A DNA stretch of 64,000 nucleotides from Polytrichum commune (lineage: Eukaryota; Streptophyta; Polytrichopsida; Polytrichales; Polytrichaceae), in NCBI GenBank assembly GCA_950295325.1, contig OX485804.1, forward strand, positions 43,822,429-43,886,428, given 5' to 3'. The number at the start of each line of letters is the position of its first letter. The stretch's first letter is position 1. The translations under genes were made by a program, and so were the position numbers. The notes beneath the pieces are model-generated. The model searched no databases. It was not told the DNA's origin and worked only from the letters and a program-made list of their open reading frames with translations. This document shows positions 2,795-57,678 of this stretch, one piece after another.

Positions 2795-5681
2795 TCACTG
2801 CAACGAACGATTCTCAAACGGCAGTGAGACAAGGGTAGCATTTCCATAAAATTCCTCCAGATTGTAAAATGCACGCTCCTTGGGGAGAAATATATGAACC
2901 ACAACATCCCCTGCAATCCAACACAATGATTTAGCACCTCCGAGCTCGGAAGTGACGAGTCTATACATCAACAGAGAAGTGTCATTAAACTTGATTTGGA
3001 TACTAGATGCTGCCAATTGCCAAAAAGGTCACATAAGGAGAAGATTCATACATGAAAAGTACATAGCCTGACAAGATCGGTCTGACAGATGATCCAATCT
3101 CTTGCTGAAAACATTTCTTTTTGGCAACAACCTGTTTACAAATTCATGATTGATAAACTGACAGGAGGAATTGATGGTTCTGTTACCAAAATCTAGCAGC
3201 GTCCAGGAATTTGGCTTGTTATCGCCTTTCGGGCTGCGGTTGAATTTCTCCTCTGCTATGTCTTTCATCCTCTTCCTACATTACCGCAGAGATTTTTTTA
3301 AGTGCACGTGCAAAAGTCAGGAACACAAGTAACGGGAACGCAATCAGCATCGACATCCATACTTCACAGGTGACCGTTTCATCAGTCAAAGTGAAACTAA
3401 CCAACCACAGGTGAAAGGAGACAGCAGAGATAAAAGTGCCATGGAGGGGAGTATGGACATACCCCACGGCGTCGATCTGAGGCTTTGAGAAGGCAGTGAC
3501 AACGACAAAGAATCGAGCCCAGTAGATGAGTGGCTTCACACACATGACTTGGATCTCATTTCCCTTCACATCATTTGCTGCTTCGGCCATGGCCACCGCA
3601 ACTGCAATAGCTTCGCCCTCAAATTAAGACCTATGCATGGTCTATAAGCATGCGAACGCTTGGCTCGTTACTAAGGTAAGCAGGCTTAATTCAGTCACTT
3701 ATCTTAACCGGACACCTATATTAGAGTGGTGTGTAATCAGGTATGGATCTAAAAACGGACACCAAAAATACACAATTTCAAAACAGATTGGACTATGTGT
3801 CAAAATTTGTTCTCTTACCTTGGCCCTCACTAATAAGCAACCGGATGACATCTCAATAATGCCCATGGTGTGCTTTGGGATCCACAGGAATGTTTAGCAA
3901 TCACAATCAACAAGTACCAGAAATCTCGTGCAGACATAATCACACAGATTGACAGTTATCCTGGTACCTTCAATTCTGTCTGATTGACTGGTTGATTGGA
4001 TATTTTTGAGCCACTTGACATCCCTATTAGGAGGAATGTATCCCCCTTCCAGCACAAAACCCTTGATAAAACTTGATGAAAGGAGCAAAGAGGAAAAGAA
4101 AAGTCGACGAGAGTCCAAGAATACTTACACGCTAGGCTGTCAGAGTCTTCATCGACCTCGGAGGTAACATTGTTTGAATCCTTATCAGACCTCACCACCT
4201 CCCCGAACTCCTCAAACAGCGCATCCAAGTCCTCCTCTTCCAGCTCTTCCAGCTGGTCCACCTCTAAATCCTGCTTCCACTAATCATGGTCAGAATCAGT
4301 CATGCTATGGTGTATTTTCTGTGCTATGTAATTGAGTTCGATAGGGAGCGACACTTGAAAGAAATTGATACAGTACAAACAAAAACAATAGTACGGAGTT
4401 GCCTGAATTGCAGCAGACACAAACGATTTGTTGCTTTTAAAACGTTTCTGAGTATTGGCAGACACAAGCACACATGGCTAGAGGTTTCACCCATACATGT
4501 GGAAAAGAGAAACTTCGGAAAATTTAGGGTTCTAGTCCTAAGAAAGCAATAAATCAAGTTAGTTGCCAACTCCCACCCAATGTCATTGAAGTTCGATTAC
4601 AAGGTTTGAGCTGGAGCTCTTTCAACTGCAGATTTCTGAATGGGAACCCAAAATTTGAGGGGGTTTTAGACTCCAACTCCCAAGGGTTCTCGAAAGGACA
4701 AAATAACAAGGCAAGAGGAAACAATTCTGAAGATAAATTGTATTAGTCGGCTTAAGTCTGAGCATGGGTAGAATGTGTCATTTAGGTTCGATACTGAGGT
4801 CTGAGCTGTAGCTCTTTCAGAAGCCAGTTTGTGAATGGGAACCCAACATTTGAGGGGGTTTTAGGGCTCCAACTTCCAAGAATTCTTGAAAGGAAAAAAT
4901 ACGAAAGTAAGGAAAAAGCATTCTGCAGACAAATCGTAGTAGCCAGCCTAAATCTGAGCGAGGGTAGAAATTTGTCACTAACAATCAACGATGAGGTTTG
5001 AGCTGGAGCTCTTTCCGAAGCCAATTTGTGAATAGGAACCTAAAGTTTGAGGGGGTTTAAGGCTCCAACTCCCAAGGGTTCTAGGAAGGACAAAATACCA
5101 AGGCAAGGAAAAATAATTTGTAGATAAATTGTAGTAGTCCGCCTAAATCTGAGCACCAGTAGAAATGCGTCATTAAGATCCAATTATGAAGTTTGAGCTG
5201 GAGCTCTTTCAACGGCCAATTTGCAAATGGGAGCTCAAATTTGAGGGAGTTTTAGGCTCCAACTCCTACAGGCTATCGAAATGACAAAATGACAAGAAGA
5301 AGAAGGGAGAGAAACAATCCTAGAGTAAACTCCGATGTTACAAGACATGTTGCAAGGAAAGGACAGAGTACTACTGACCTCAATTTCCTCCATGTTGCGT
5401 CCAGTTTGCGAATTCGATACACTTCTGCAACCTTGGTGCGCATCCCTAGACGAGAAATCGAGCCTCTGCGAAGAGGAGAAGAAGGTGACGCTCTGCGGGT
5501 GGCGGCTGCTCGATGACGTTGCTGCTCCTGCTGATGCTTGCAAGACAGGCCGAGGTGTAGATGTACTCACGGCCCGCACAGTGTGACTGCGACCACTGCA
5601 GCTAGTCGGGCCAGGCCACAGCCCCATCGGAGGAGGACTGCATTGTTGCATAGCCAGAACCTGGCGATGATGAAGAAGCAT
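2795..5681 (-). CDS. IOJAP: Protein Iojap / ribosomal silencing factor RsfS, plastid-type
   Basis: Five minus-strand exons join in phase: 5379-5681, 4129-4270, 3463-3601, 3187-3275 and 2795-2910, giving 262 residues. The start is the ATG at 5679-5681, in the context ACCATGC. Residues 1 to about 60 are rich in Ser, Arg and Ala and look like a plastid transit peptide. An acidic linker follows (LEELEEEDLDALFEEFG). The RsfS domain runs from about residue 150 to the end: DVKGNEIQVMCVKPLIYW, ARFFVVVTAFSKPQIDAVG, KPNSWTLLDFG, DVVVHIFLPKERAFYNLEE. RsfS proteins bind uL14 on the large ribosomal subunit and block subunit joining; plant Iojap acts in plastids. The intact domain suggests a working gene. 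Intron 1 is 1.1 kb and holds a 195-bp tandem array. Confidence 0.93.
3690..3830 (+). repeat. Copy of a dispersed repeat family in Iojap intron 2
   Basis: The words 'acacctatatt', 'gtggtgtgtaatca', 'gatctaaaaacggacacc' and 'gattggactatgtgtcaaaa' align, with many changes, to similar blocks near 31680, 43450, 50130 and 53930. The family is described under the copy at 31680. It is unclassified. Confidence 0.45.
4583..5290. repeat. Tandem array of about 195-bp units in Iojap intron 1
   Basis: The phrase 'gtttgagctggagctctttc', with small changes, begins at 4604, 4799, 4996 and 5191, so the period is 195-197 bp. Each unit continues with 'tttgagggggttttaggctc' and 'caactcccaagggttct'. There are about 3.6 units, diverged by roughly 10-20 per cent by eye. 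The array ends about 90 bases short of the 5' splice site of exon 1. No coding frame is kept through it. Confidence 0.93.
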
Positions 5682-6280
5682 GGTACACACGAACCCTACA
5701 ACACACTATCTCTCTCTCTCTCACTCTCTTCTCTTCTTGGCCCACGAAACCCTAACCGAACTCCAGCCGAATTGAACCCAAATTCCTTTCGACCTGTCTC
5801 TGATGTAGTAGCTGCAAGAGCCGGTTGCCACTAACTTACATAGAGCTCGCGTTACTCCTATCGATTCCTGACAAATACAACTATACTGGAAGATTGTACA
5901 AAGCCAGAAACAAAAATCATGGCAAAACTCCTACCCTTGAGTCCTCGCCTGTCCACAGCAAGCGAGAGATGCGGCTAGACAATTAAGTTATCCAAACATC
6001 CGGTTCGGCTCCTGAGACGCTGAAGCCTGATGACAAGCTCGTTGTTCGTCTGAAGCTCCTCCGCTGCTGTGGACAGAATGTCCAATCCATTATCATCCGT
6101 TGGCCAGGGCCCACCCACCCGCCTCGTCCTTCAACCCTAAACCCTAGTACTAGCCGGTCCCCGGACTTCGGCAGCCGGGTATCAGCCGTCAACGGTGATC
6201 CCCGCTGGATTCGGGACACCGGAATAATTTGATTTAATTTAATTTAGTTTGATTTAATTTATGTATCAATTACGGCCTAA
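5682..6280. promoter_or_regulatory. Upstream region of Iojap with telo-box motifs
   Basis: This region is more GC-rich than its surroundings. It carries a pyrimidine tract (CT repeat at about 5708-5722), a telo-box AAACCCTAA at 5747-5755 and a double telomere-like motif 'aaccctaaaccctag' at 6133-6147. Telo-boxes are common in promoters and 5' leaders of plant genes for the translation machinery, which suits a ribosome factor. This is a promoter by position and motif only. No TATA box was assigned. Confidence 0.5.
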
Positions 6281-6779
6281 GGGCCGCTTCACACAGGAGA
6301 CTGAGAGCCCGTGACCAGTACACTTCAAGCACTCTCATTGGTGGAAAAGGCGGAGCCGGTTGAAGTTCGCTTCCCACTACGCTTGAGGGACCAACTGAGC
6401 ATGTGAATGCAAGATGGATGTAAAGTCTACATGAATTCCTACATGGCATCAAATGGATCATGTTTCATGGTCACTTGGACTATTTTCAAAAACCACCTCT
6501 TGGAGGTTGGCCTAACACAAAACCGCGAGACCATGGCACTCTGAACACTCACAACCGTTGGTTGATTCTATTTTATCATGTGTGAAGACCTGCATGAATA
6601 TATATTCATTGAAATATCATTTGATTAAGGGTTCGGTCACATATGACTTCACACTACACTTGAGGATCCGTGACCACACTACATGAATTTGGAGGTGTCT
6701 TGGGATGGCCTTTGGACACTTTCTTTTGGGCTCTCACAATTTCATGATCACGGCTCTTGGCTCGTGTGTGAAGTGGCCC
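6281..6779. mobile_element. Tourist-like MITE (PIF/Harbinger type), complete, copy 1
   Basis: The 499-bp element starts GGGCCGCTTCACAC and ends GTGTGAAGTGGCCC, and is flanked on both sides by TAA (6278-6280 and 6780-6782). A three-base TWA target duplication with GGGCC-type termini is the signature of PIF/Harbinger MITEs. It is inverted relative to the copies at 29123 and 51933. No transposase frame is present. Similarity to the other copies runs the full length. Confidence 0.85.
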
Positions 6780-6782
6780 TAA

Positions 6783-11488: not shown

Positions 11489-14400
11489 TTATGGAAGTGA
11501 GAATAGGATGTTTTTGTTGGTACGGTCATTGAAGTAAGAGCTCCCATCTGAATCTTGTCGTTCCAACATCACCTTATCCTTCACGTGTTCGGCTCGTTTC
11601 TGTGTTTTGGCTATGTCTTTCCGTGTAATCATGCCTATGACCCTGGACACCGTATCAACAAAACGCAGTAATAAGGAATCTTCTACAAAACATCGCGGCT
11701 TAGTACATAACTGGTTGGAATTAATTTCTGCAGTTTGGACATATCTTTCCGCGAAATCATGCCTATGATACTGGACACCTGACCACCAAAACACAATCAA
11801 GTGGGAGTCTTCTCGGAAACATCATAGGGTAGTACACAAATGTTTGGGATTGAATTCTGCGCTTTGGCTATGCCTTCCACATCATCATGCCTGTGCCACT
11901 GGAAACCGCATAAAAGGAACGCAATCAAGCGGGAATCTACGAACAAATCAGCACAGCTTGGTACACAAATGTACGGGATTAATTTCTGAGTTTGCCTATG
12001 CTTTCCGGAGTCATGCCCATGACATTGGACAACTCACAAATGAAACGCAATCAAGTAGGAGTCTTCTAGAAACAGCTTCGCACAGATTAGTACACAAATA
12101 TTTGGGATAACTTTGGTGTGAGGTTTCGACTCATGACAAACATACATAGAATTGAATATATACAAAAGATTTCTATGTATATTTGTCGCAGAAACGGTTT
12201 TTGAAACCAAACCTGTTACTGGAGTCGGTGACACACAAGTGCCTTAATCCTAATGTGCGAAATATTATATATGCACGTTGAGCTGAACATTCTGCACGAA
12301 CCTGCACTAATCCCACAAAAGGAGCTAAGATCGACCGCAAGACTTCCTGCACTTCATACAAAGGGGAGTCCATCATTAGAAGCAGAGATGAATATTTAGA
12401 AACGAATACTATCATGGTGTACATACCAAATCATAACCCATCCTACCGTCACAGGTGCACGATTCATAAAACATCTGAGGTCCAAAGCCAATTCTCTCCT
12501 GCCCTTGGTAGATTGTTCTTCAGTCTTGACTGGTTCGTCAGAACCATTGATCTCCACAGTTGCTGAAGAATTAATTCCATTTGTTGACTCATGCACTCCA
12601 GTTGTTACTGGGTTCTCCTGCAAAAGCACCAGTCACGACAGGCATTTTTATTGTAGGGGATACGATCAAGATGGAAATAGAACAGTTGGCATCTGATTAG
12701 GATACTGGCAGATTTGTCTCATAATTTTAAGGACACTCACGCAAAAGAAGACCTACCTGCAAGATGTCCTCGAGCTCCAACTCCTCCAAGGCTTCAGGGA
12801 AGGATGACAAATATCGCTTATGAGGGTAATGGCTATGATGATACACACGCATCGCATGGTCCAAATACACATGCTCTTTCGTGACCCTTGGTTCTCTCTC
12901 AATTAGTCTCCGAGGAAGAGACTGGTGTAATGTATCCGAATCCACTTCGATCAGAGCTCGCTGTTCTAGGAGCAAGAGGAGCTGATGCCGGAGAATCAAC
13001 CCAACTAACTGGCCCTCATCATAAGGCTCTGCATGTCTAATAACTGGAAAACCGTTGTGGCGAGTGCTTTGCAGAACCTGAACAACCTCGGAAACTGATG
13101 CAATCTGTAGAAACCCAGGTCATTGATAGTTTCAAGACTTTCCTTTCATCAAACACAAGTAGAAATCAAGAAAAGTACACAAGGGTCATAAACTTGGACT
13201 ACAGCTTGTCCGAATGTGCTTGGAGTGCTATTGTGGATGCTTTGTTAATTCACATTCTACGGATCTAATAAATGCCTATAAAACATTTGCAGAATTTGTA
13301 AGCAGAAGAGCTCCCAACTAGTTACCTCTGTAAATGTGATGACATGGGGAGCCATCATCTCAGCTGCAGTAACTGAGACTAGATCGCGAGGTGGCTCACT
13401 TTGGAGAAAACGAACTTCTCCTGAACAATCAGATGGCAAACTGAATTCTCAGTACGCAATGCATGAGCGCCGGGAGAAAGAAATGAGCCATAACAAGGAA
13501 TACAAACAAATAATCTATGTATATAATTTGGATAGCATGCGCCAGTAAAGAGAGGATGGATTTGCATGATGGAAGTACCGAGGCGTTCTAAATCAGCTTC
13601 ATAGGCACCAGCATGATGGATATGATGAGCCACCCAATTGCCAACATAAATAGAAATAATTGCTGGCAAGAGGTACTGGATGCCGCCAGTACCCTCCATC
13701 ATGATAACCACCTATGAAAATTCAATTGACAGGTGAATCAGGAATAGAAAAAATAACCATTTAGGAAATCTGGACCATGTATACTGCATATAAACAGAAA
13801 CTCATAGAAAGGATAAGCACATACATAGTACATAGTACATAGGAAACAGAGCAAGATTGACAGAAAGCCTGGCATAGAAAGCATGTGAAGCCATTCCCAT
13901 GTGGCCTCTTTATATAGAAGTCATCGGTGTGGAAAGTAAGTGGCCATGTTGCAAATTAAGTTGAAAAACGGATTGCTTCGGTACCAAAGACAAAGAAGAC
14001 CGAAAGACACCACCTAGCATTGCTGTTGCTCCAACCAATGCATGAAGACCTGGCTGAATGTTTTCACTGCAATTCCAGAAAAGGTTGATGAACTGTTCAA
14101 AACCTCAAAAAATTTACCAACTACTCTGCACGTTGTAGATATATGTTAGACTGAAAATGGATGCATTAATTCAGTGCACACTTCATATTCTACAGACTCC
14201 AAGATGCATATACTTCAAGAAACTAACAAGTTCTCTGCTTACTCTGGAAAGTATATCTTAAAAACTCGACCCAAGAAGCCTCCGACAGATGCCCCAACCT
14301 ACAAGGCATCACAGGCATTTACAAAAAGGAGCAAAGGACTGAACTATTTTGAAATTGCATCCATAGGGTAGGTACAAAAAGAGTGTCAATAGCTAAGTGA

Positions 14401-17400
14401 TTTACAGATGTGTGTCATTGTGTAGTGCAAGGCAACCATCGAAGCACTTGTGTACATCACTACAGCGTTCCATGATTTGTAAACAACAGTTGAGCAATGG
14501 AAGTCCTTCATCTTTGATTAGGTCAATTTTCCAAAAACACCCTTGTACTCTGACGGTTACTACACAAAATCAGATGCAGTTATGAATTTCAGATTCTTCA
14601 GCAGTGATTTCACTGAATTCTCGGTTGCTTTAACTCATGTTATTCGTGTATTATTCATGTACTGACTGCGGAGTAGTGTGATATTTACAACTTTGAATGA
14701 CAGTGTATGTGGTTGTGAGCTTTTGAGGACTTATGGCATCATTTTTTTTCATAAGAATCAGCTTGTGAGCCCAGAGAAATTGAGTTCTAAACTCTGAGTT
14801 GTACCATAATCGAAGGCATAAAAATGCCTCCCGGAGTTGCAACGCCGTAAGCAAGGTTGAACATAGCAAAAAAAGACATCGAGTGTATAGCCAGACTGCG
14901 TATGGTGAAATATGTATCTGATACACCTCCCATTGCCAGCAACTGCTTGATTGTCTGCCGAAATTGACCAACAATTACATCAATATGGACTACCAGCATA
15001 TGCATAGAATCTTTAAATTTGATCAGAATTATCAAATTATTTCAGAAAGTAATGCAATAATAATATAACTGTAGATGACATACCTGGTGAGGTACGGCAA
15101 AGAACAAGCTTCCAAGGTCATTATAGTAGGCTACCCCAGTCTTGGGATCAGCTTTTGGACATGTGTAACGAAACCAGTATTCATCATCCTTTTGCCTGCA
15201 AGAAAGTCATGTGCTTTATACAAAAAAGCTCCTGGATCCAATTTTCCAAGCAAAGGCTAACGGCATCCAACAAGCGCAACCTTATTGATACAAAATATAG
15301 TGTTCAGACATACCCTTCCTGGATGGGCAAACAGCGACCGAAAAAGTGAGATAGGAGGAACATGTTGCTAACAGCAATGAAAGTGATGAAACACGCCTCT
15401 GCAATCCTGTAGACATTTCCCATAACCAATTATTTATATGATAGAATATAGTAATCTCGTACTACAGGATCCATGAAAAAATTCTGGAATTCATGTTCCA
15501 AATGCTCATTATCAGCCCTGAAATAATACTCTTATCTAGTTGAGAACTTAACATAAACCTCTTAATAAGTTCATGGATGTTTTTTAGAACTTTGGACAGT
15601 TCCTGACACATCCCCATGGTAATATTTGAAGATTAAAAAAGACGAAAGAGTCTGTTATTTGAAGACTTCAGGACTCTACCACCCCATGGGCGTATGTAAG
15701 AGGAGTTACAGTGACATAAAGCGCAACAAAAAGCAATTATTAGAATAATTATAGAATGAGTCTGTTAAATAATGGTTAAAGGACCCTCCCACCCAATGGA
15801 CGAATGCAAAAGCACCTACAGACATAAAGCGCAACAGATGGCACTCTTTCATATTAAAATTCTTTCATCATAACGTTCATAGCCATAACGAAGTTTCTTG
15901 GTCCCTGATACCCACTAATGTCTCAGGTCCCTTCACCAATATTGAAGACAGCTGAGCTACATATATTGCGTTGATGCATTTGAAAGTAATAACACTTGCC
16001 ACTTATTGACAGGTAATCAAATCAAGAGGCTTGAAAGTAAGTCAAAGCCAAATTTTCCCTAGGACTATTTGGCTTGTCAGCAAAACATGGAAGGTATTCC
16101 TCATAAACAAAACCAAAGGACCCGTAAAAAGCAGGTGCAAACCTTACGAGCCTGTGTTTTGATGGAGGCCTAAATTGAGATAGCCAACCATGAGCCGTAT
16201 TGAGTAATGCCCCCAATACACCCAATGATGCAGCAGTAGCCATGATTAGAGGAACAGAGTCCAAATCAACCTCCACCTGTATTCAAATGGCACATTGAGA
16301 ATCAACCTACGTCCTAAATCTGAGAAAATAATCAACTCCTGTTTAGTGGAGGTAGTTCTAAAAGCAGAAATTAATTATCTTACCATGCCGCACACCACAT
16401 TGTCACCACACTATTGGACGAAGTATAGGAGGTCCCTATAGATGATTGCTTGTTCGAGAGATTTTGATAAGAGCTATATAACAATATGGAAAGATGTTCA
16501 CAGGAGTACCTGAAAGCCATGGAAAGCAAGACCCCCCGGCAATGATAGAGAGGAGACGTCCCTGCAGAAGTCAAGGATCCCTATAACTTATACTGTAATG
16601 CAGTGAGATACAAAAGGTTCAACTCAAATAATAGCCACATTACATGGTTAGTTATTTGATAATTAGGTTTCATTTACACTCCAACCTCCCTAATATCACG
16701 CCTGTGACAATCAAAGTGCATGTGATATTCAGGAGGTATGTAATGTTAACTTGGATGCATGATAATAGAGATTTAGTGTAGCATGTACCATTATGGAAAT
16801 AACACAAAATTAACATTGCAATAATGACAATAACTAGAATGATGACAATGTGATGCATGCAAGCGTGTGGTTTGAATTCTTTTATGGATTACTTTAATGT
16901 CAAAACCTGTGATATATTGGAGGGATATAAGAGACAGTGTGACAATACGGAAAGTGATATTACGGAGGCTAGGGTGTAATATCAATATGAAAACTTCAGA
17001 TTGCAATCAAGAATGAAGGACATCCAATAGTAATACCAAAATGTACAAATTTGAAAGTACAAATTCAAATCAAATTGCAAACTAAACACATCCAGAAAAC
17101 ACACCCGTCATTCAACCATGCAAGTACCAAAGTTGCCATTGTTGTGCATAAGAGTGATCGCCACATGACCTGCATCAAAAGAATTCGGATGAAATTGGAG
17201 TGCCGCCAAACGTCAAAATTATTTCACAAGACTGTACAAAGCGTCTTACTATGCTTCATACAGGAAAACTAGACATAGTACCCACAACGGTCAAAATCTG
17301 CCAGCTTAGTTCATATTGTGCAAATCAAGTCATGTATTTACCTTCCTTGACCAGAAGCTTGAGGCTTCCTCCAAAGAGAACAACACTCCACCGATTGGTG

Positions 17401-20179
17401 CACCGAATGCAGCAGCTAAGCTGAGACCAAACCACCAGAACGTCAATGGAGGCCCTTAGCCAGGTGTACTAAACCTCATCCTAAAATAAGTTGGGTATAG
17501 ATACAACTACACACTAAAGCAACTCGAAATCAAGAACAAATAGGTTATCAAGTAGGTGGAGAACAAGTTCCATTCAGTACAAAGCATCTTGATGTGAGCA
17601 TACCCTGCTGCTGTACCAGCTGAGATGAACTCTCTTCGGTCCTTGTCATTGTGAAAGTCCTGAATACAACTCACACCCTGACGTCACACATACAAGTCTA
17701 CAACCTAGAGAGAAAACATAGACAGAATTCGCATTGAAGTTGCTGACAATCTACTGGGCCGACGATACCCTGACAAAAAAACACCATCGTTCAAATCCCA
17801 GATTTACTAATTTCGTTACAAGTTTCTTTCCCGGTCACCGAATTGACACAAAGTGATGAGCTCCCAACCACAAACTTTAGCGTGTCTGAAAGGAGCTAGG
17901 GCCTGAATGGTGCGTCTAGAGCCTGTCAGCTTGGCGCTATTTGATCATTCTTGATAACTAACCCAGTCATCCCTGAAACCGACTGAAACAAAGAACTCGA
18001 CTTACAAATGGCCACGCCTTTCGAGTAAACTTGCTGAGTTTTTTAAGGCACAATCTAGAGGAACCCCTTGAACCCTGCTTTCTCCGTATTGGAAACCGAC
18101 CATGCATCCATGTAAATGAAGAAGCGATAGCAGCACCAATGTGTACCATGGGTCCTTCTTGCCCTATCTGCTCTACATGAAAATGCATACACTTGTGTCA
18201 GCACCTCCAGGACCTGATGCACCTCCAAGACAACACACACAGAATCCTCAACTACTATACACTAAACACTATTGTCGAATCATTCACCAGAGATCATAAT
18301 GAGTATACCACAATAAGCAGTTCCCTTTAAAAACGCCAACTCAAATTGCAAAATAACCTCAGAAAATTCTCCCTGACGTACCGGCAACCCAGATGATATT
18401 GTGCAGATAGTTCCAAAAATCTGCAAGAATACTAACATTGCATTGGCAATTAAGGCTTCTTTCTGGTATCTATAACATTGCTTGATGTGATGCAATACAT
18501 ATCCACATTCACCTGACTAAACAAAATTCAAGAGTTCTACAATGATACATACAGGAGGAAGCCGGGGCTAAGGAGGAGATGTTAGGAAAACAAACTGATT
18601 GACATGGACCTTGCTTTGAAATGAGGTCAATGTTACCTTAGTGACAAGAGTTCGGAATTCAAAAAAGTCTGGAATATCGATCCCATTCAAGTAGGCCATT
18701 ACCAAAGTAACCTGCACAATTTATGAAGAAATTTATAAACCAGGGTTTGCAAATACTTTCCCTGCATCTTTATGGTCAGAATGTTGAAATGTTTAAGATA
18801 GATTTCTGAAGAACCAGACTTAAACAAATAAATCAAGATCCAGGAAACTTGTCATACAATGTACTGGACATAAATCACAAAATGTTCAAAGAATCCTACT
18901 TTAACTTACCCCACCACCCGCAGCAGCAGGGGCCCAAAGAAGAACTAAGCAACTCGATATTAAGACCAGGAAAGAACCAAACGCTGCATAAGCAAGGAAC
19001 ACAAATGGCAAATTCATCCCTTCGTCAATGGTTTTCTGTGTCCAGTCTTTCTGCATCACCAATTCAAAGGTCACTTGTTTGTCAGTTGGAAATTTAAACA
19101 GACAGAGGGTGGACAGAATGAAAACTGCAGAATCACCAACCCTGTACAAAGCAGATTCAAGCCATCCCACGCTCTCAACACAAAATCCAGCAACGTGTAT
19201 CTTAAGCATAGTTATCAAAGCTCAATCCGTAAAAAACTGAAGGAGCGTAATACACCAATGAATACGGTAATATTCGCTCAATATGTAGTACAATTCTTAT
19301 CTTGATCCATAGGAAATGAACCAATAATCTACCTTTGTGGTAATGAGTAATTCTTGCGAGGATTCGACAATGTATGCGACCACACCTGCATAATTAGAAG
19401 AAAAAACTTATTACTCTTGATCTCCTCATCAACCAGGTCATATTTCCGGTCAATAGAAACTCCAAGTACTGTAACGGTCTGACTAATCAAAGGATGAATT
19501 GATGGCTTTAATGCATATAAGTAGAACAATATGTTTCACAAGTATCAAAAACTGTGATAAGAAACTGGATGACATACATCGAATACATAAGTCAAACCAT
19601 ATAGAAAAACCATCAATATTGGAAGAAGTAACGGAAGAAATTTTGAATCAATTACCCTTTCTTAGGGTACGTCACATCACAAAAAACCAGCAAGCCTACT
19701 CCTAAGTTGATCAAGCGAAAGAGAGCTTACCAACAAGAACACCAATGAGGATAGTAATAAGCCATTTAGCCAACGTGAGACCTGTATATCTGCACAAATA
19801 AGACTTATCTGATGAATTACCTGTGGTACAGATACAAGCCTCGAATTCAGAGATGATCTCCAAATCCGCATACATTCAAATCTTATGAGATGAATCAAGA
19901 AGTCAAATTGGCGCACATATAGGTGCACGTGAGCAAAAGTAAATGCTTATAAGCACATGCAAACCAACATTGTACCTCAAACACACTTTCTTACCCATAA
20001 AAATGCCGCCGTTGATTCCCTTTCTTTTGTTGTGAATACACAAGACTGTGAATTGGGTCATAATCTAGACTCTCAACACCAACTTCATCGTCATTAGGCT
20101 CTTCCTCCTGGTAACTTTGGCATTCTTCCAGGTGGCCAAGAAGTAATGGAACCTCAGTCTCTGGTTCTATATCTGCCAT
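11489..20179 (-). CDS. CLC-family chloride channel / anion-proton exchanger with two CBS domains
   Basis: Twenty-three exons join in consistent phase to 860 residues: 19995-20179, 19731-19789, 19333-19385, 18910-19050, 18637-18711, 18382-18420, 18006-18167, 17604-17659, 17342-17420, 17105-17169, 16510-16561, 16143-16276, 15314-15406, 15084-15195, 14805-14954, 14243-14298, 13985-14066, 13579-13711, 13326-13420, 12757-13104, 12447-12617, 12213-12301, 11489-11642. Motifs in order: SLDYD near the N-terminus; [10 protein letters not shown] (about 139-148) in place of [14 protein letters not shown] (185-193) with the gating Glu; [16 protein letters not shown] (260-275) with the proton Glu; GGIFMPS (477-483); AGAYEADL with the pore Tyr; then CBS1 and CBS2, ending [10 protein letters not shown] and [10 protein letters not shown]. 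The tail resembles ClC-6/7, and the two glutamates point to an anion/proton exchanger of an internal membrane (inference). A strong donor at 20804 and an acceptor shortly 5' of the ATG suggest an intron in the leader. Confidence 0.95.
11600..12110 (-). repeat. Fourfold tandem duplication of the CLC terminal exon and its acceptor
   Basis: Four units of 126-128 bp lie in a row. The phrase 'atcatgcc' falls at 11628, 11756, 11884 and about 12010. Unit 1 is the used start of the last exon (acceptor then GGTCATAGGC, reading [15 protein letters not shown]). Unit 2 keeps an AG acceptor and reads [16 protein letters not shown], then 14 further codons to a stop at 11683-11685. Unit 3 reads a few matching codons and then a stop. 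Unit 4 has lost the AG. All three extra units lie inside the last intron. Confidence 0.92.
15643..15842. repeat. Tandem duplication of about 113 bp in a CLC intron
   Basis: Two diverged units share 'gagtctgtta', a 'ccacc(c)aatgg' block and 'gacataaagcgcaacа'-like ends (exactly 'gacataaagcgcaaca'). They sit in the intron 15407-16142. No coding meaning is seen. Confidence 0.75.
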
Positions 20180-29122: not shown

Positions 29123-29520
29123 ATGGTCATGGATCCTCAAGTGTAGTGTGAAGTCACATGTGACCAGGCCCTCAACCAAATGCTATTTCAATGAGTTTCT
29201 ATTCATGCGGGTCTTCATACATGATATAATAGAATAGATCAACGGTTGTGAGCGTTCGCAGTGCCATGGTCTCCCGGTTTGGTGTTAGACCTACCTCCAA
29301 GAAGTGGTTTTTTGAAAATAGTCCAAGTGACCATGAAACATGATCCATTAGATGCCGTGTAGGAATCCATGTAGACTTTACATCCATCATGCATTCACAT
29401 ACTCCGTTGGTCCCTCAAGCATAGTGAGAAGCGGACTTGGAGCGGCTCCGCCTTTTCCACCAATGAGAGTGCTTGAAGTGTAATGGTCACGGGCTCTCAG
29501 TCTCGTGTGTGAAGTGGCCC
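29123..29520. mobile_element. Tourist-like MITE, copy 2, one end missing
   Basis: It matches 6281-6779 (inverse) and 51933-52430 (direct), but about 100 bp of its left end are absent. The right end GTGTGAAGTGGCCC is intact. Confidence 0.8.
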
Positions 29521-29672
29521 TTGGAGTCACGGTCTCTAGCTTGGCATCATGCTAACATTGTTCACCACAATAGGTGAATGTGGGCTAATATTCTCGGAAT
29601 TAAGTGAGCCATTACCATGGCCCACCCAACTCAGTTGCATAGTCGGGTAATTTTTTGGATTTCATACACAAA

Positions 29673-49665: not shown

Positions 49666-51932
49666 ATGGCATTTTCAAGATTTTTTTAAAGTGGAATTTG
49701 CAAGATTGGTTTATGGGAAGAACACTTTTTAAAAATCATAAATAAATTTCTGGATATTTTGTAAGAATGTTCATTCACGTATAGACATATGTCATATCTT
49801 AAGATGCATACAAATATACAAACACTATTATAAGTCTCTATTTGTAATACAATTAAAAATACATGCATGATCGTTTTAAAAGGAAAGAAAGAAAAAGAAA
49901 AAGAAGAAGAAACAACAACAACAACAACAACAACAACCTTCACTTTTAGCTACAATATAACTTTGCATCTCAAACACAATTCTCCATCTCATAATGATAA
50001 TTTTTGCGATTCGCATTTGCAAGTTGGATGCGACAATTCTAGTTGATTTGATTTAACAACAAAAATTGTATGTGGAGTTGGAGGTGCCCACAACAAGGTG
50101 TGTGGGTGTTATTTGGTTCCTCTTCTTAATCATATCTCTATGTTTGACTGGTATGTGGTTTGACGAGGATCAAAGAACAAACACTATAAAGACACATTTT
50201 TAAAGAAGATTGGATTACATCTTCAAATATTCTTAACTACTCTACACTCAATTGATGTTGATGCTTCATCGTAGATTTGCTAATGCAACAGAAGTTTTCT
50301 TATGCAAATCCAATTGGTAGAAGCCAGAGAACATGAAAAAAATGAAACAAATAACATCTACATACCTTAAACAAGTGTTTCATTTCCTTTTGGAGACTAT
50401 CACTTTGCTAGAAGGTCTACAATAGAACTCGGGTCACGATCAACCATAGGGCGTACTAGGCACCAAACAACACACGTCTCCACTCGACCATCACGAGAGT
50501 GGTTCTTGCAACACGTGAAAATGGTACAATAACTCCAACTTAGAATACATACATTAAAACATCTAGTTGATTGTGGTCCACACCATTCATCATCGATCCA
50601 CGCTACTTATTTAGTGGATGGCATATGTCATAAGGCACTTGGTGCTACATGGCCAGTCATGAATAACACAATATGATGAACACAACCCACTAATTTTAAT
50701 GCCACACAAAATTGTATATGCTAATGTGGTTCATCATTTGAAGTTGTTGGTATAATGGGCACACTAAATAACACGGGCCACAATCAATCATGAAGAGCCC
50801 ACACTTATTGAATATCAATCCATGTCGAATTTGTAGTTGGTATTTAATTAACAAGGAAAACATTTCAAAAGTTCAAGTATTTGTTCTTAGGAGATTGATG
50901 TGGAGTGAGGATGGTTTTATTGTATGCTACTTACATTGAATCTAAAATTCAAGGTGTTGGTCAAAAGTCTTGGACACGATGACTTAGGGAAAGACGTGGG
51001 TTTTTGGGGCTTATGTTATTTCCACCATGGTTAGATCATTAGTGCAACTCACATTAATTTCTCACCCACACCAAAAGGTCCATTAAGTGAACATTGACAT
51101 GTGAAACCAAGTCAACCCACACTAGTTTTATCAACATTCCACACTATTTTGGAATATTCAATACATCTCATTTATTCACTAATGGTTGGCATATGGATGG
51201 ATGAACAAACAACCACTTTAATTTTTTGTGATGTAGTTTTGACCCAAAATAAGTTGCATCGGTAAATGCGTCGACCTATTTGTGAGGAAGTCAACCTAAT
51301 TAAGCATACTAGTGTAATATATACTAATTATCCTAGTTAGCATGTGTGTTACTAATTTCCAAAACACACACACTATTTTTCCAAGTCTCAAATTTTAAGA
51401 GGGCCAAAATTTGTATTGAGTGAACTCACAAATACATGCTCAATTACCATGCATTGCAAGAGAATTAGTGTGTACTTTAAGGTGATTGTAGGAGTGATGA
51501 AACAAATTATATGCAAACACATGCTTGTCAATGAACACAACCAAGATGAAGAGTGCCGATACTTTTAGTAATTATTGATGCTATGAATAGTAATTTCAAG
51601 GAATAATACTGAGATGACCAATGCTTCCTAGATTTAAAAATAAATAAATAATTGGTAGCACTAATTTCATAGCGTAAGTATTACCTTCACTAATTTCCCA
51701 CACACACTATTAGCCCTCCCTCACTAATTGGGATGATTAAAGTAGTTTTGCCACAACGTAATGGATAAGAATATCTTCATGCTACAAATGTTTGAAGCTG
51801 AAGGACGAAATAATAAATCATTTCCTTAAAATCAAGCACCGTGTAAAAGAATCTATGTGTGCGCACAACACTACATATGGTTTCAACAAGTGGATTCTAG
51901 ATAGATTAAAGTTTTGAAAGAAGTGAATTTGA
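49666..51932. other. Intergenic stretch with repeat fragments
   Basis: An AAC repeat lies at 49911-49937, a dispersed-family copy at about 50130-50240, a copy of the 42850 repeat at about 50255-50320 and the short 'cgacctatttgtgagg' repeat near 51270. No gene was recognised. Confidence 0.4.
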
Positions 51933-52430
51933 GGGCCACTTCACACATGAGCCAAGAGCCGTGACCATGAAATTGTGAGAGCCCAAAAGAAAGTGTCCAA
52001 AGGCCGTCCCAACACACCTCCAACATCATGTAGTGTGGTCACGGATCTTCAAGTGTAGTGTGAAGTCATGTGTGACCGGGACCCCAACCAAATGCTATTT
52101 CAATGAATTTCTATTCATGTGGGTCCTCACACATGATATAATAGAATAAACCAACTGTTGTGAGCGTTCGGAGTGCCATGGTCTCGCGGTTTTGTGTTAG
52201 GCCTACCTCCAAGAGGTGGTTTTTGAAAATAGTCCAAGTGACATGAAAAATGATCCATTGGATATCATGTAGGAATCCATGTAGACTTTACATCCATCTT
52301 GCATTCACATACTCCATTGGTCCCTCAAGCGTAGTGTGAAGCGAACTTGGACCGGCTCCGCCTTTTCCACCAATGAGAGTGCTTGAAGTGTACTGGTCGT
52401 GGGCTCTCAGTCTCGTGTGTGAAGTGGGCC
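51933..52430. mobile_element. Tourist-like MITE, complete, copy 3
   Basis: The 498-bp element begins GGGCCACTTCACACA and ends TGTGTGAAGTGGGCC, flanked by TGA on both sides (51930-51932 and 52431-52433). TGA differs from the TAA at copy 1, so the third base position of the target is not strict. Confidence 0.85.
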
Positions 52431-52484
52431 TGATGTAATGATGGATAAATTAAATAGACAAAAGGCACAACTTTTTGAAATAAG

Positions 52485-55551: not shown

Positions 55552-57678
55552 GAAGAAAGTAACCCATTTAAGAAAAATCCTACCTTTGCTAGGTGGAACT
55601 GAATTAAGCTCGGTGGCGTTAAAGCAAAGTCCGACTTTGGAAGCCGGGCTAGTCCACCCAAAAGTACAATTACAATGGGACATGTTTCTCAAGTATAGAG
55701 CCAAATAGCAACATTTCACGTCGAAGATCGGCAACTGGGCACATCGCCTGGTCATGAATCATGATGAATCGCAAGTGTTCGGAAGGAGCGGATCATACTT
55801 ATTATATTTCGGGCTTGACTCAAAAAGGGGCAGCCCCTCGATCGGCCCAATTGCAAAAGGACGAGGGAAACTAAACTAAACATGTACTTTTTACGTCTGA
55901 AACTTTGAAGTGAGATGAATGCGCGACTCAAGCGAGGAATTGTCGGCGAGAAGAGAGGATTTGTGGGGGAAATGGGCTTGGCGACTACTTGGTACGCGGC
56001 TATGGCGGACTGCACCAATTGCATCTGCCCCTTTTAGCCCTTGCGCCTCCACGCCTCGCATTCCCCTTCTTGGCTTCGCTTTCCTGTTCCTTTCCCTCTG
56101 TCCCTCCGGTGGATGTCAGTGGAGGAATCAATCATTCCTCCCCGGCTCATTCTTACTGATCTGCCGCTGCGCTGTTCGATTCATCAAAGCCTTGGAAGAA
56201 GTTTTGGGTGGCTTTTGGTTGATGGAGTTCACATAAGTTTCTGTCAAGAACTTCAACATCTGCTGCTGCTGCTGAATCTATTCGATCTCTTTGTTTCGTA
56301 GCCGGCGGTGGATTGATTCCCACGAGAAAGCTGGTCGGGAGAAATCTGACGTTGGTCTTGGAGTTCAAACTCTGGAAAGGTTAGTGACCTACTTCTCTCC
56401 TCTTCGTGCAACTCGAAAGTGCTAGTTGACTCGTCCTTCCTTCCGACACATTGGTTGGTTCAGACCAGCAACAACATCTGCTGTTGCTGAACTGGATCTA
56501 AGATGCGTAGCTTTTGTAGCTGGTGGATTGATTTCTGTGACGAGAAAGATGGTGGAGAGGAATGTGACGTTTAGCTTGGGAGTTGAATCTGTGAAAGGTT
56601 GTTGGTGGCGCTTCTCTTCTCTTCTCTTAGTGCAACTTGTCTGCTGGTTGAAGCATTCTTCTTCCGACACATTCGTTGGTTTCTATCAACAACAGCATCT
56701 GCTGTTGTTGAATCTAAGCTACTTCGCCTATGTAGCCGGTGGATTGAGTACTGTGACGAGGAAGGCGGTTGATAGAAATGTGTGTTTGTCTTGGGAGTTG
56801 GATCTCTGGAAGGTTATTGGTGGTGCTTCCTTCTCTTGGTGCAACTAGTCTGCTGGTTGAATCATTCTTCTTCCGACACAGTCGTACAGATCATCATCAT
56901 TCTCTACTTAATGTCGCCTACCCCCCTGCAGGCAGTCCTTGCCAGGGGCAATGTGGATTAGGGACCACAAGTTTGCTTGCAGTGAGTGAGATTGGAATCT
57001 GTCTATCTTTCTATCAGTAAGGTTGATGTTGTCCTGTTTTATGTGTCCCCGATCTTAAAGCTTATTAGGTTGATGTCCCTTCCTTATCTTCACGGAGGCT
57101 CTTCGACAGAAAACCACGCATTGTCACTGATCCACCTTCCTGTCTTCCCTTGAAGGACAAGAATTTACATTCCGAGCTGGATACTGGGTTGCAATGTAGG
57201 TTAGTGGCTGCAAGCAGCTTGTACATTTGCCATGGTCATAGATTTGTCAGAAGTTGTCTGTCTACCTGCCTGCCTTTCCGATTTTTAAGAAAAAAGTGGC
57301 TCTCGCGTTGTCAAGGTACGGTTTCGGAGGAGTTGCTGGCAACCACTGGCACCTGACCACCCACCTCATTATGTATCGACACATTTATTCAAGCTGCAAC
57401 TACAAGTAATGAGCAAGACAAAAACAGCTGGACTACTCGCTGGTGATCACTGTGTGTGTGTGTGAGAGAGAGAGCTTAGAGCAGTTTGTTGATGAGCATT
57501 CAAACAAACATTTGGCATCCGAATCGTTCATATTTCCTCGGACTCAGGTTGTTTGAATCTCTTCTGTCGACACTCAGGTCTGCGTTTGGTGGCTCAGCAG
57601 ACACACATTGTCGACATACTTACTTAGGAGGTTTAAATCTTGTGGACTGAAGAAAGAAAAACAGATCCTACACCAACA
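55552..57678 (+). promoter_or_regulatory. Upstream region and probable long leader of the proline-rich gene
   Basis: From 55900 the base composition becomes GC-richer and pyrimidine-rich. A triplicated block (56235-56885) lies here, and each unit ends in a donor-like AAGGTT. A GT/GA repeat is at about 57451-57473. Acceptor-like 'actcag' words occur near 57545 and 57575. A leader with introns is plausible; transcription start is unknown. Confidence 0.4.
56235..56885 (+). repeat. Three tandem units of about 210-220 bp upstream of the proline-rich gene
   Basis: The phrase 'cttccgacac' falls at 56440, 56661 and 56870 (spacing 221 and 209). Each unit has a CTG-rich stretch, 'tagccggtggattga' or a near form, 'gacgagaaa', and 'ctctggaaaggtt' or a near form. 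One frame reads similar peptides in each (VAGGLISVTRKMVERNVTF, VAGGLSTVTRKAVDRNVCL), but spacing is not a multiple of three. Confidence 0.85.

What the first reader, a model, noticed from the sequence alone, without database searches (positions are those of the whole stretch)
11600..12212. Terminal CBS2 exon of the CLC gene duplicated four times in tandem
The last intron holds three extra copies of the start of the last exon, each with its acceptor region. One (acceptor at 11770/11771) still has an AG and an open frame of 29 codons, which would replace the CBS2 end by [15 protein letters not shown] and a new tail. This could be a cassette of alternative terminal exons that changes how the channel senses nucleotides, or simply decaying duplicates.
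Basis: partly seen in the sequence, partly recalled or inferred. Interest (0 to 1): 0.72.

Follow-up and report, generated by a model that had tools for sequence, protein, structure and literature searches.

The report
Old repeat copies inside CLC intron
A short stretch spanning the last splice site of a plant chloride-transporter gene was copied in tandem to give four copies, and comparison with a sister gene suggests that the three extra copies have drifted like ordinary intron sequence rather than being kept as alternative gene endings.

Summary
The array is real. On the minus strand, the last intron of a 23-exon CLC-7-like gene (20179-11489) carries three extra copies of a ~128-bp unit: about 82 nt of 3' intron plus the first ~46 nt (of 154) of the last exon. 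The fourth copy is the real junction at 11642. The open frame after 11770 is as described (29 codons). Only the start of the exon is copied, and copy B also keeps its AG.

An intact paralogue 1.28 Mb away carries the same four copies in the same order, so the array predates the gene duplication. Between paralogues the real exon start has 0 amino-acid and 2 silent changes. The same stretch of copy C has 7.5 and 1.5 (dN 0.218, dS 0.203; gene-wide dN 0.029, dS 0.199). Copy C drifts neutrally, B' lost 31 nt of its exon-like part, and A lost its AG.

I read it as an old tandem duplication across an intron-exon boundary, its upstream copies absorbed by the intron. A published potato case shows the same kind of event (PMC4974935). 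Leaky use of acceptor C is not excluded: no RNA was available, and a weak splice-site model does not rule it out.

The parts
11489..20179 (-). CLC-7-like gene, 23 exons, 860 codons (hand-built model, no RNA)
   Evidence: model; human CLC-7, E 4.4e-104; Voltage_CLC 255.9 bits, CBS 63.1 bits, both above cut-off
11643..12212 (-). last intron (570 nt), donor GTTTGG, acceptor TCCAG
11981..12108 (-). copy A (borders approximate); AA where the others have the acceptor AG
11853..11980 (-). copy B (borders approximate); AG kept, first base 11898, frame stops after 10 codons
11725..11852 (-). copy C (borders approximate); AG kept, first base 11770, frame open for 29 codons; a second AG 8 nt upstream (first base 11778)
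11597..11724 (-). copy D, the real junction: about 82 nt of 3' intron and the first 46 nt of the last exon
11489..11642 (-). last exon (154 nt), coding for the end of the second CBS domain and the C-terminal tail

Best explanation
A segment of about 128 bp spanning the last 3' splice site (about 82 nt of intron and 46 nt of exon) was amplified in tandem to four copies before the gene itself was duplicated. Splicing to the last copy keeps the protein intact, so the three upstream copies fell inside the intron and have since drifted neutrally in both paralogues. Shown: the array, its collinear presence in the paralogue, and the neutral divergence of copy C. Inferred: slippage or unequal crossing-over as the copying step, and main or sole use of the last acceptor.
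For: Array in the window and the same four copies in the same order in an intact paralogue. A tree pairs each copy with its counterpart, local supports A 0.82, B 0.89, C 0.96, D 0.96. Copy C against C': 7.5 amino-acid and 1.5 silent changes, dN 0.218, dS 0.203; the real exon start: 0 and 2; gene-wide dN 0.029, dS 0.199. Seven or more amino-acid changes have binomial probability 1.3e-4 under the gene-wide amino-acid rate and 0.56 under the silent rate. In copy C the exon-like part (9 of 46 differ) is no more conserved than the intron-like part (14 of 83), P 0.81; in D the exon part (2 of 46) is more conserved than the intron part (18 of 81), P 0.0098. B' lost 31 nt of its exon-like part. The C7 relative's last intron lacks the units.
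Against: Both C and C' keep an AG and an open frame, though simulation gives 0.71 survival of both at 10% change and 0.49 at 20%. A weak acceptor matrix from 21 sites puts C at 2.7 and D at 4.2, but C' at 6.2 above D' at 4.4. The direct contrast of C with D exon parts is borderline, P 0.0499. In 1000 bootstraps A's nearest copy was A' in only 257, and all four paired in only 227. One paralogue pair and 46 nt are a small sample, and no RNA was seen.
Confidence: 0.88

Rival explanations
1. Functional alternative acceptor: acceptor C (11770) is used in some tissue and gives a CLC with a slightly changed CBS2 end ([10 protein letters not shown]) and a short new tail, which could alter nucleotide sensing.
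For: AG and a 29-codon open frame in C, a 45-codon one in C'. The duplicated stretch begins exactly at the part that aligns with the end of CBS2 in human CLC-7. The acceptor matrix does not exclude C and favours C' over D' in the paralogue.
Against: Neutral amino-acid divergence of C against C'; unrelated tails; a second AG 8 nt upstream that scores higher (6.1 against 2.7) and gives a stop after 5 codons; other AGs in the intron score above both C and D, so the score is not specific.
Confidence: 0.06
2. The copies act on splicing itself, as decoy acceptors or repeated splicing signals that tune how much full-length mRNA is made, with no useful alternative protein.
For: Several AGs in the array score as high as or higher than the real acceptor; using the B or C acceptors gives early stops; the array has been kept since before the gene duplication.
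Against: The intron-like parts of the copies diverge at JC 0.37, 0.22, 0.19 and 0.26 between paralogues, about the gene-wide silent rate or more (0.199), so no constraint is seen. Intron 22 as a whole is 0.78 identical, within the range of the others.
Confidence: 0.05
3. Assembly error or chance similarity.
For: Tandem arrays can be misassembled.
Against: Copies within the gene are only about 67-73% alike over their full length, the array recurs in the paralogue, and TRF scores 345 against a best of 58 in 200 shuffles.
Confidence: 0.01

Closest known systems
Tandem genomic duplication across an intron-exon boundary, potato RdRp gene (PMC4974935)
   Different: In potato a cryptic donor was recruited and a new intron arose, confirmed by RNA reads. 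Here there are four older copies, about 70% alike, at the last intron, and no sign of a new intron; the extra copies lie inside the old intron.
Intron gain by tandem duplication of an AGGT-containing exon segment (model reviewed in PMC3443670)
   Same: Tandem duplication multiplies splice signals (passages read).
   Different: There the duplicated segment is exonic and supplies both donor and acceptor; here it carries an acceptor, and no new intron is inferred.
Mutually exclusive exons from tandem exon duplication (PMC6071210)
   Same: Duplication takes neighbouring intron along with exon sequence (passages read).
   Different: No whole exon is duplicated, copy C shows no constraint, and the flanking introns are not conserved as they are around mutually exclusive exons in that paper.
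CLC-7-type H+/Cl- exchanger (human CLC-7, PDB 7bxu)
   Same: Domain order, and the end of the second CBS domain: [14 protein letters not shown] aligns with NQVVGLVTRKDLAR.
   Different: A longer C-terminal tail, and GGGVT where human CLC-7 has GSGIP.

Membership tests
Tandem genomic duplication across an intron-exon boundary | Head-to-tail copies that contain intron end, acceptor and exon start | tested here: met
Tandem genomic duplication across an intron-exon boundary | Absent from an outgroup locus with the same intron | tested here: met
   The C7 relative has a last intron at the matching place without the units; local scores of A-C are below the best of 200 shuffles, and D's match is the exon start. 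One outgroup only.
Intron gain by tandem duplication | A new intron with its own donor inside the duplicated region | tested here: inconclusive
   GTs at 11778 and 11650 score 4.6 and 3.8, within the gene's own donor range of 2.9-9.4; but exons from either B acceptor to 11778 hold a stop in their frame, and 11650 lies 8 nt from the real acceptor. No RNA.
Alternative (mutually exclusive or terminal) exon cassette | Purifying selection on the protein read from the alternative copies | tested here: not met
   Copy C dN 0.218, dS 0.203 between paralogues; B' exon-like part deleted
Alternative (mutually exclusive or terminal) exon cassette | Transcripts that use the alternative copies | not testable with these tools
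   No RNA data available
CLC transporter with CBS domains | Voltage_CLC and CBS profile matches above the curated cut-off | tested here: met
   255.9 and 63.1 bits against cut-offs of 24.8 and 24

The most novel reading that the evidence does not exclude
Acceptor C is used at a regulated level in at least one of the two paralogues, so that a tandem duplicate not held by selection gives each paralogue a different CLC C-terminus. In the paralogue the C' acceptor even scores above the real one (6.2 against 4.4).
Probability: 0.06. Interest if true: 0.5.

Novelty: new member of a known kind. Interest (0 to 1): 0.17.

Why it matters
It is a clear natural example of one fate of a duplicated splice acceptor: the copies nearest the donor are taken into the intron and decay. 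Two paralogues sharing the same four copies allow the fate of each copy to be followed. It also shows that an open frame next to an AG can outlast a duplication by chance, so it should not by itself be read as an alternative exon.

Tried and rejected
Further copies upstream of A (12113-12212), in exon 22 (12213-12301) or in the rest of the last exon (11489-11596): none above shuffles, lowest P 0.22 in 12 comparisons. Copies elsewhere in the genome: two DNA searches found only the two CLC paralogues; the tool calls its counts lower bounds. An internal cassette exon: two GTs in the array score within the gene's donor range (11778 at 4.6, 11650 at 3.8), but exons from either B acceptor to 11778 contain a stop and 11650 lies 8 nt before the real acceptor. 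A weak AG (first base 11762, score -0.7) would read through into the real exon after a 40-residue insertion; I read by hand that the paralogue's equivalent frame is stopped. Species: not established. PsaA on contig C8 matches PDB entries 8htu and 6l35 best, which I recall as moss photosystem I; one paper search for a moss genome gave no moss paper in the 10 of 182 listed. Paper searches on plant CLC splice variants gave 0 papers and 3 that looked irrelevant from the listing. Searches on duplicated exons and acceptors: 19 papers, 15 listed; 1; 9; 0.

Full report
WHAT IS THERE. The minus strand of the window holds a 23-exon gene (20179-11489) for an 860-residue CLC protein. Its best match among solved structures is human CLC-7 (E 4.4e-104), and it matches the Pfam profiles Voltage_CLC and CBS. 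The model was built by hand from splice borders and homology, without RNA. The last intron runs 12212-11643 (570 nt); the last exon starts at 11642. TRF reports one array at 11597-12108, period 128, 4.0 copies, 68% matches, score 345; ungapped families are spaced 128, 128, 126 and 129, 129, 129. In 200 dinucleotide shuffles TRF gave 33 hits of score 30 or more, the best 58. In gene order the copies are about A 12108-11981, B 11980-11853, C 11852-11725 and D 11724-11597; the alignment used borders shifted by about 4 nt. Each is about 82 nt of intron-like sequence, an acceptor place, and up to 46 nt matching the start of the last exon. D is the real junction.

The last exon is 154 nt, so less than a third of it is repeated. 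The frame after the AG of copy C is open for 29 codons, as stated. Copy B also keeps its AG, but the frame stops after 10 codons; A has AA. A second AG lies 8 nt upstream of the copy C acceptor (first base 11778); it scores higher in my acceptor matrix (6.1 against 2.7) and its frame stops after 5 codons.

THE PARALOGUE. A search of the window's own genome (407.8 Mb, 64 contigs) with 11550-12212 found one other place, C2:42550782-42551352, on the other strand 1.28 Mb away, 75% identical over query 45-663. It is a full second gene: 22 of 23 exons align at 0.90-0.98 identity without gaps, and exon 11 was misaligned at 0.19. A short search found 51 nt of the exon 11 query at 94%; by eye the paralogue's exon 11 differs by a 3-nt in-frame deletion. 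Within the 45.5 kb fetched around it, the block shared with the window in order covers roughly window 23030-9750; other matches look like dispersed repeats. The paralogue's last intron holds the same four copies in the same order. A tree of the eight copies pairs A with A', B with B', C with C' and D with D', local supports 0.82, 0.89, 0.96 and 0.96. In 1000 bootstraps the nearest copy was the counterpart in 257 (A), 918 (B), 940 (C) and 986 (D), and in all four at once in 227; A rests mainly on its place in the intron alignment, and the start of A' is missing. The array is therefore older than the gene duplication. Copies within a gene differ by a mean JC distance of 0.43 in the intron-like part, counterparts between genes by 0.26. 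A more distant relative on C7 (54% identical over residues 602-724) has the same last-exon start, and its last intron shows no array.

THE TEST. Leaving out exon 11, the paralogues differ by dS 0.199 and dN 0.029. The first 46 nt of the real last exon show 2 silent and 0 amino-acid changes; the same stretch of copy C shows 1.5 silent and 7.5 amino-acid changes, dN 0.218 and dS 0.203. Seven or more amino-acid changes have binomial probability 1.3e-4 at the gene-wide amino-acid rate and 0.56 at the silent rate. In copy C the exon-like part (9 of 46 differ) is no more conserved than the intron-like part (14 of 83), P 0.81; in D the exon part (2 of 46) is more conserved than the intron part (18 of 81), P 0.0098; C against D exon parts is borderline, P 0.0499 (with intron-like counts). 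B' lacks 31 nt of the exon-like part. The predicted products are [29 protein letters not shown] for C and RVIGMIFWKDICKMQKLISNNVYNVPIYSERFLIDCIVLIRCPGS for C'.

AGAINST THIS READING. C and C' both keep an AG and an open frame. In simulation both survive in 0.71 of lineages at 10% change and 0.49 at 20%, so this is not surprising. A matrix from the gene's other 21 acceptors (leave-one-out 1.5 to 14.8) gives C 2.7 and D 4.2; four other AGs of the intron score above D (11890 at 7.4, 11936 at 6.5, 11778 at 6.1, 11682 at 5.1). In the paralogue C' (6.2) and A' (5.9) score above D' (4.4). The matrix is weak and unspecific, but it does not exclude leaky use of the copies. No RNA was available.

MECHANISM. 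Tandem copying across a 3' splice site leaves several acceptors, of which only the last reads into the rest of the exon. Splicing to the last restores the protein; the earlier copies become intron and drift. The copying step is inferred. Acceptor C would not add a cassette: the new exon would run on through D to the old 3' end. Two GTs in the array score within the gene's own donor range of 2.9-9.4 (11778 at 4.6, 11650 at 3.8), but exons from either B acceptor to 11778 contain a stop, and 11650 lies 8 nt before the real acceptor.

COMPARISON. The potato RdRp case (PMC4974935; [quoted passage not shown] there it made a new intron with a recruited donor. A review (PMC3443670; passages) lists tandem genomic duplication among the mechanisms of intron gain. 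PMC6071210 (12 of 39 places seen) treats mutually exclusive exons from tandem duplication, where flanking introns are more conserved than others; that is not seen here. PMC2674458 was seen in two passages. I file the finding as a new member of a known kind.

VERDICT.

Noticed in passing
window gene 11489-20179 (exons 4-5); L003; L031: The CLC subfamily of this gene has GGGVT where human CLC-7 has GSGIP, a motif I recall as the anion-selectivity loop, while the GxEGP glutamate is kept. The C2 paralogue and the C7 relative share GGGVT across the same exon border.
   Followed up: partly
window 6278-6782, 29123-29522, 51929-52431: Copies of a repeat of about 400-500 bp, about 88-91% identical to two inverted stretches beside the paralogue (C2:42533761-42535153), suggesting a fold-back mobile element.
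   Followed up: no
window 4602-5266 and 56322-56885: Two other tandem arrays, period 195 (3.4 copies) and 216 (2.6 copies), so arrays of units this long are not rare in this window.
   Followed up: no
L030 (G000:C3:12486500-12496400), about 4813-4971: An isolated copy of exon 4 of this gene, 87% identical in protein over residues 96-148; no other significant match to the protein in the 9.9 kb fetched.
   Followed up: no
L028 (G000:C5:20284000-20293500): A CLC relative whose C-terminal CBS part gave no significant match in the 9.5 kb fetched; one exon is identical in protein to that of the C7 gene over 34 residues. Possibly a truncated copy.
   Followed up: no
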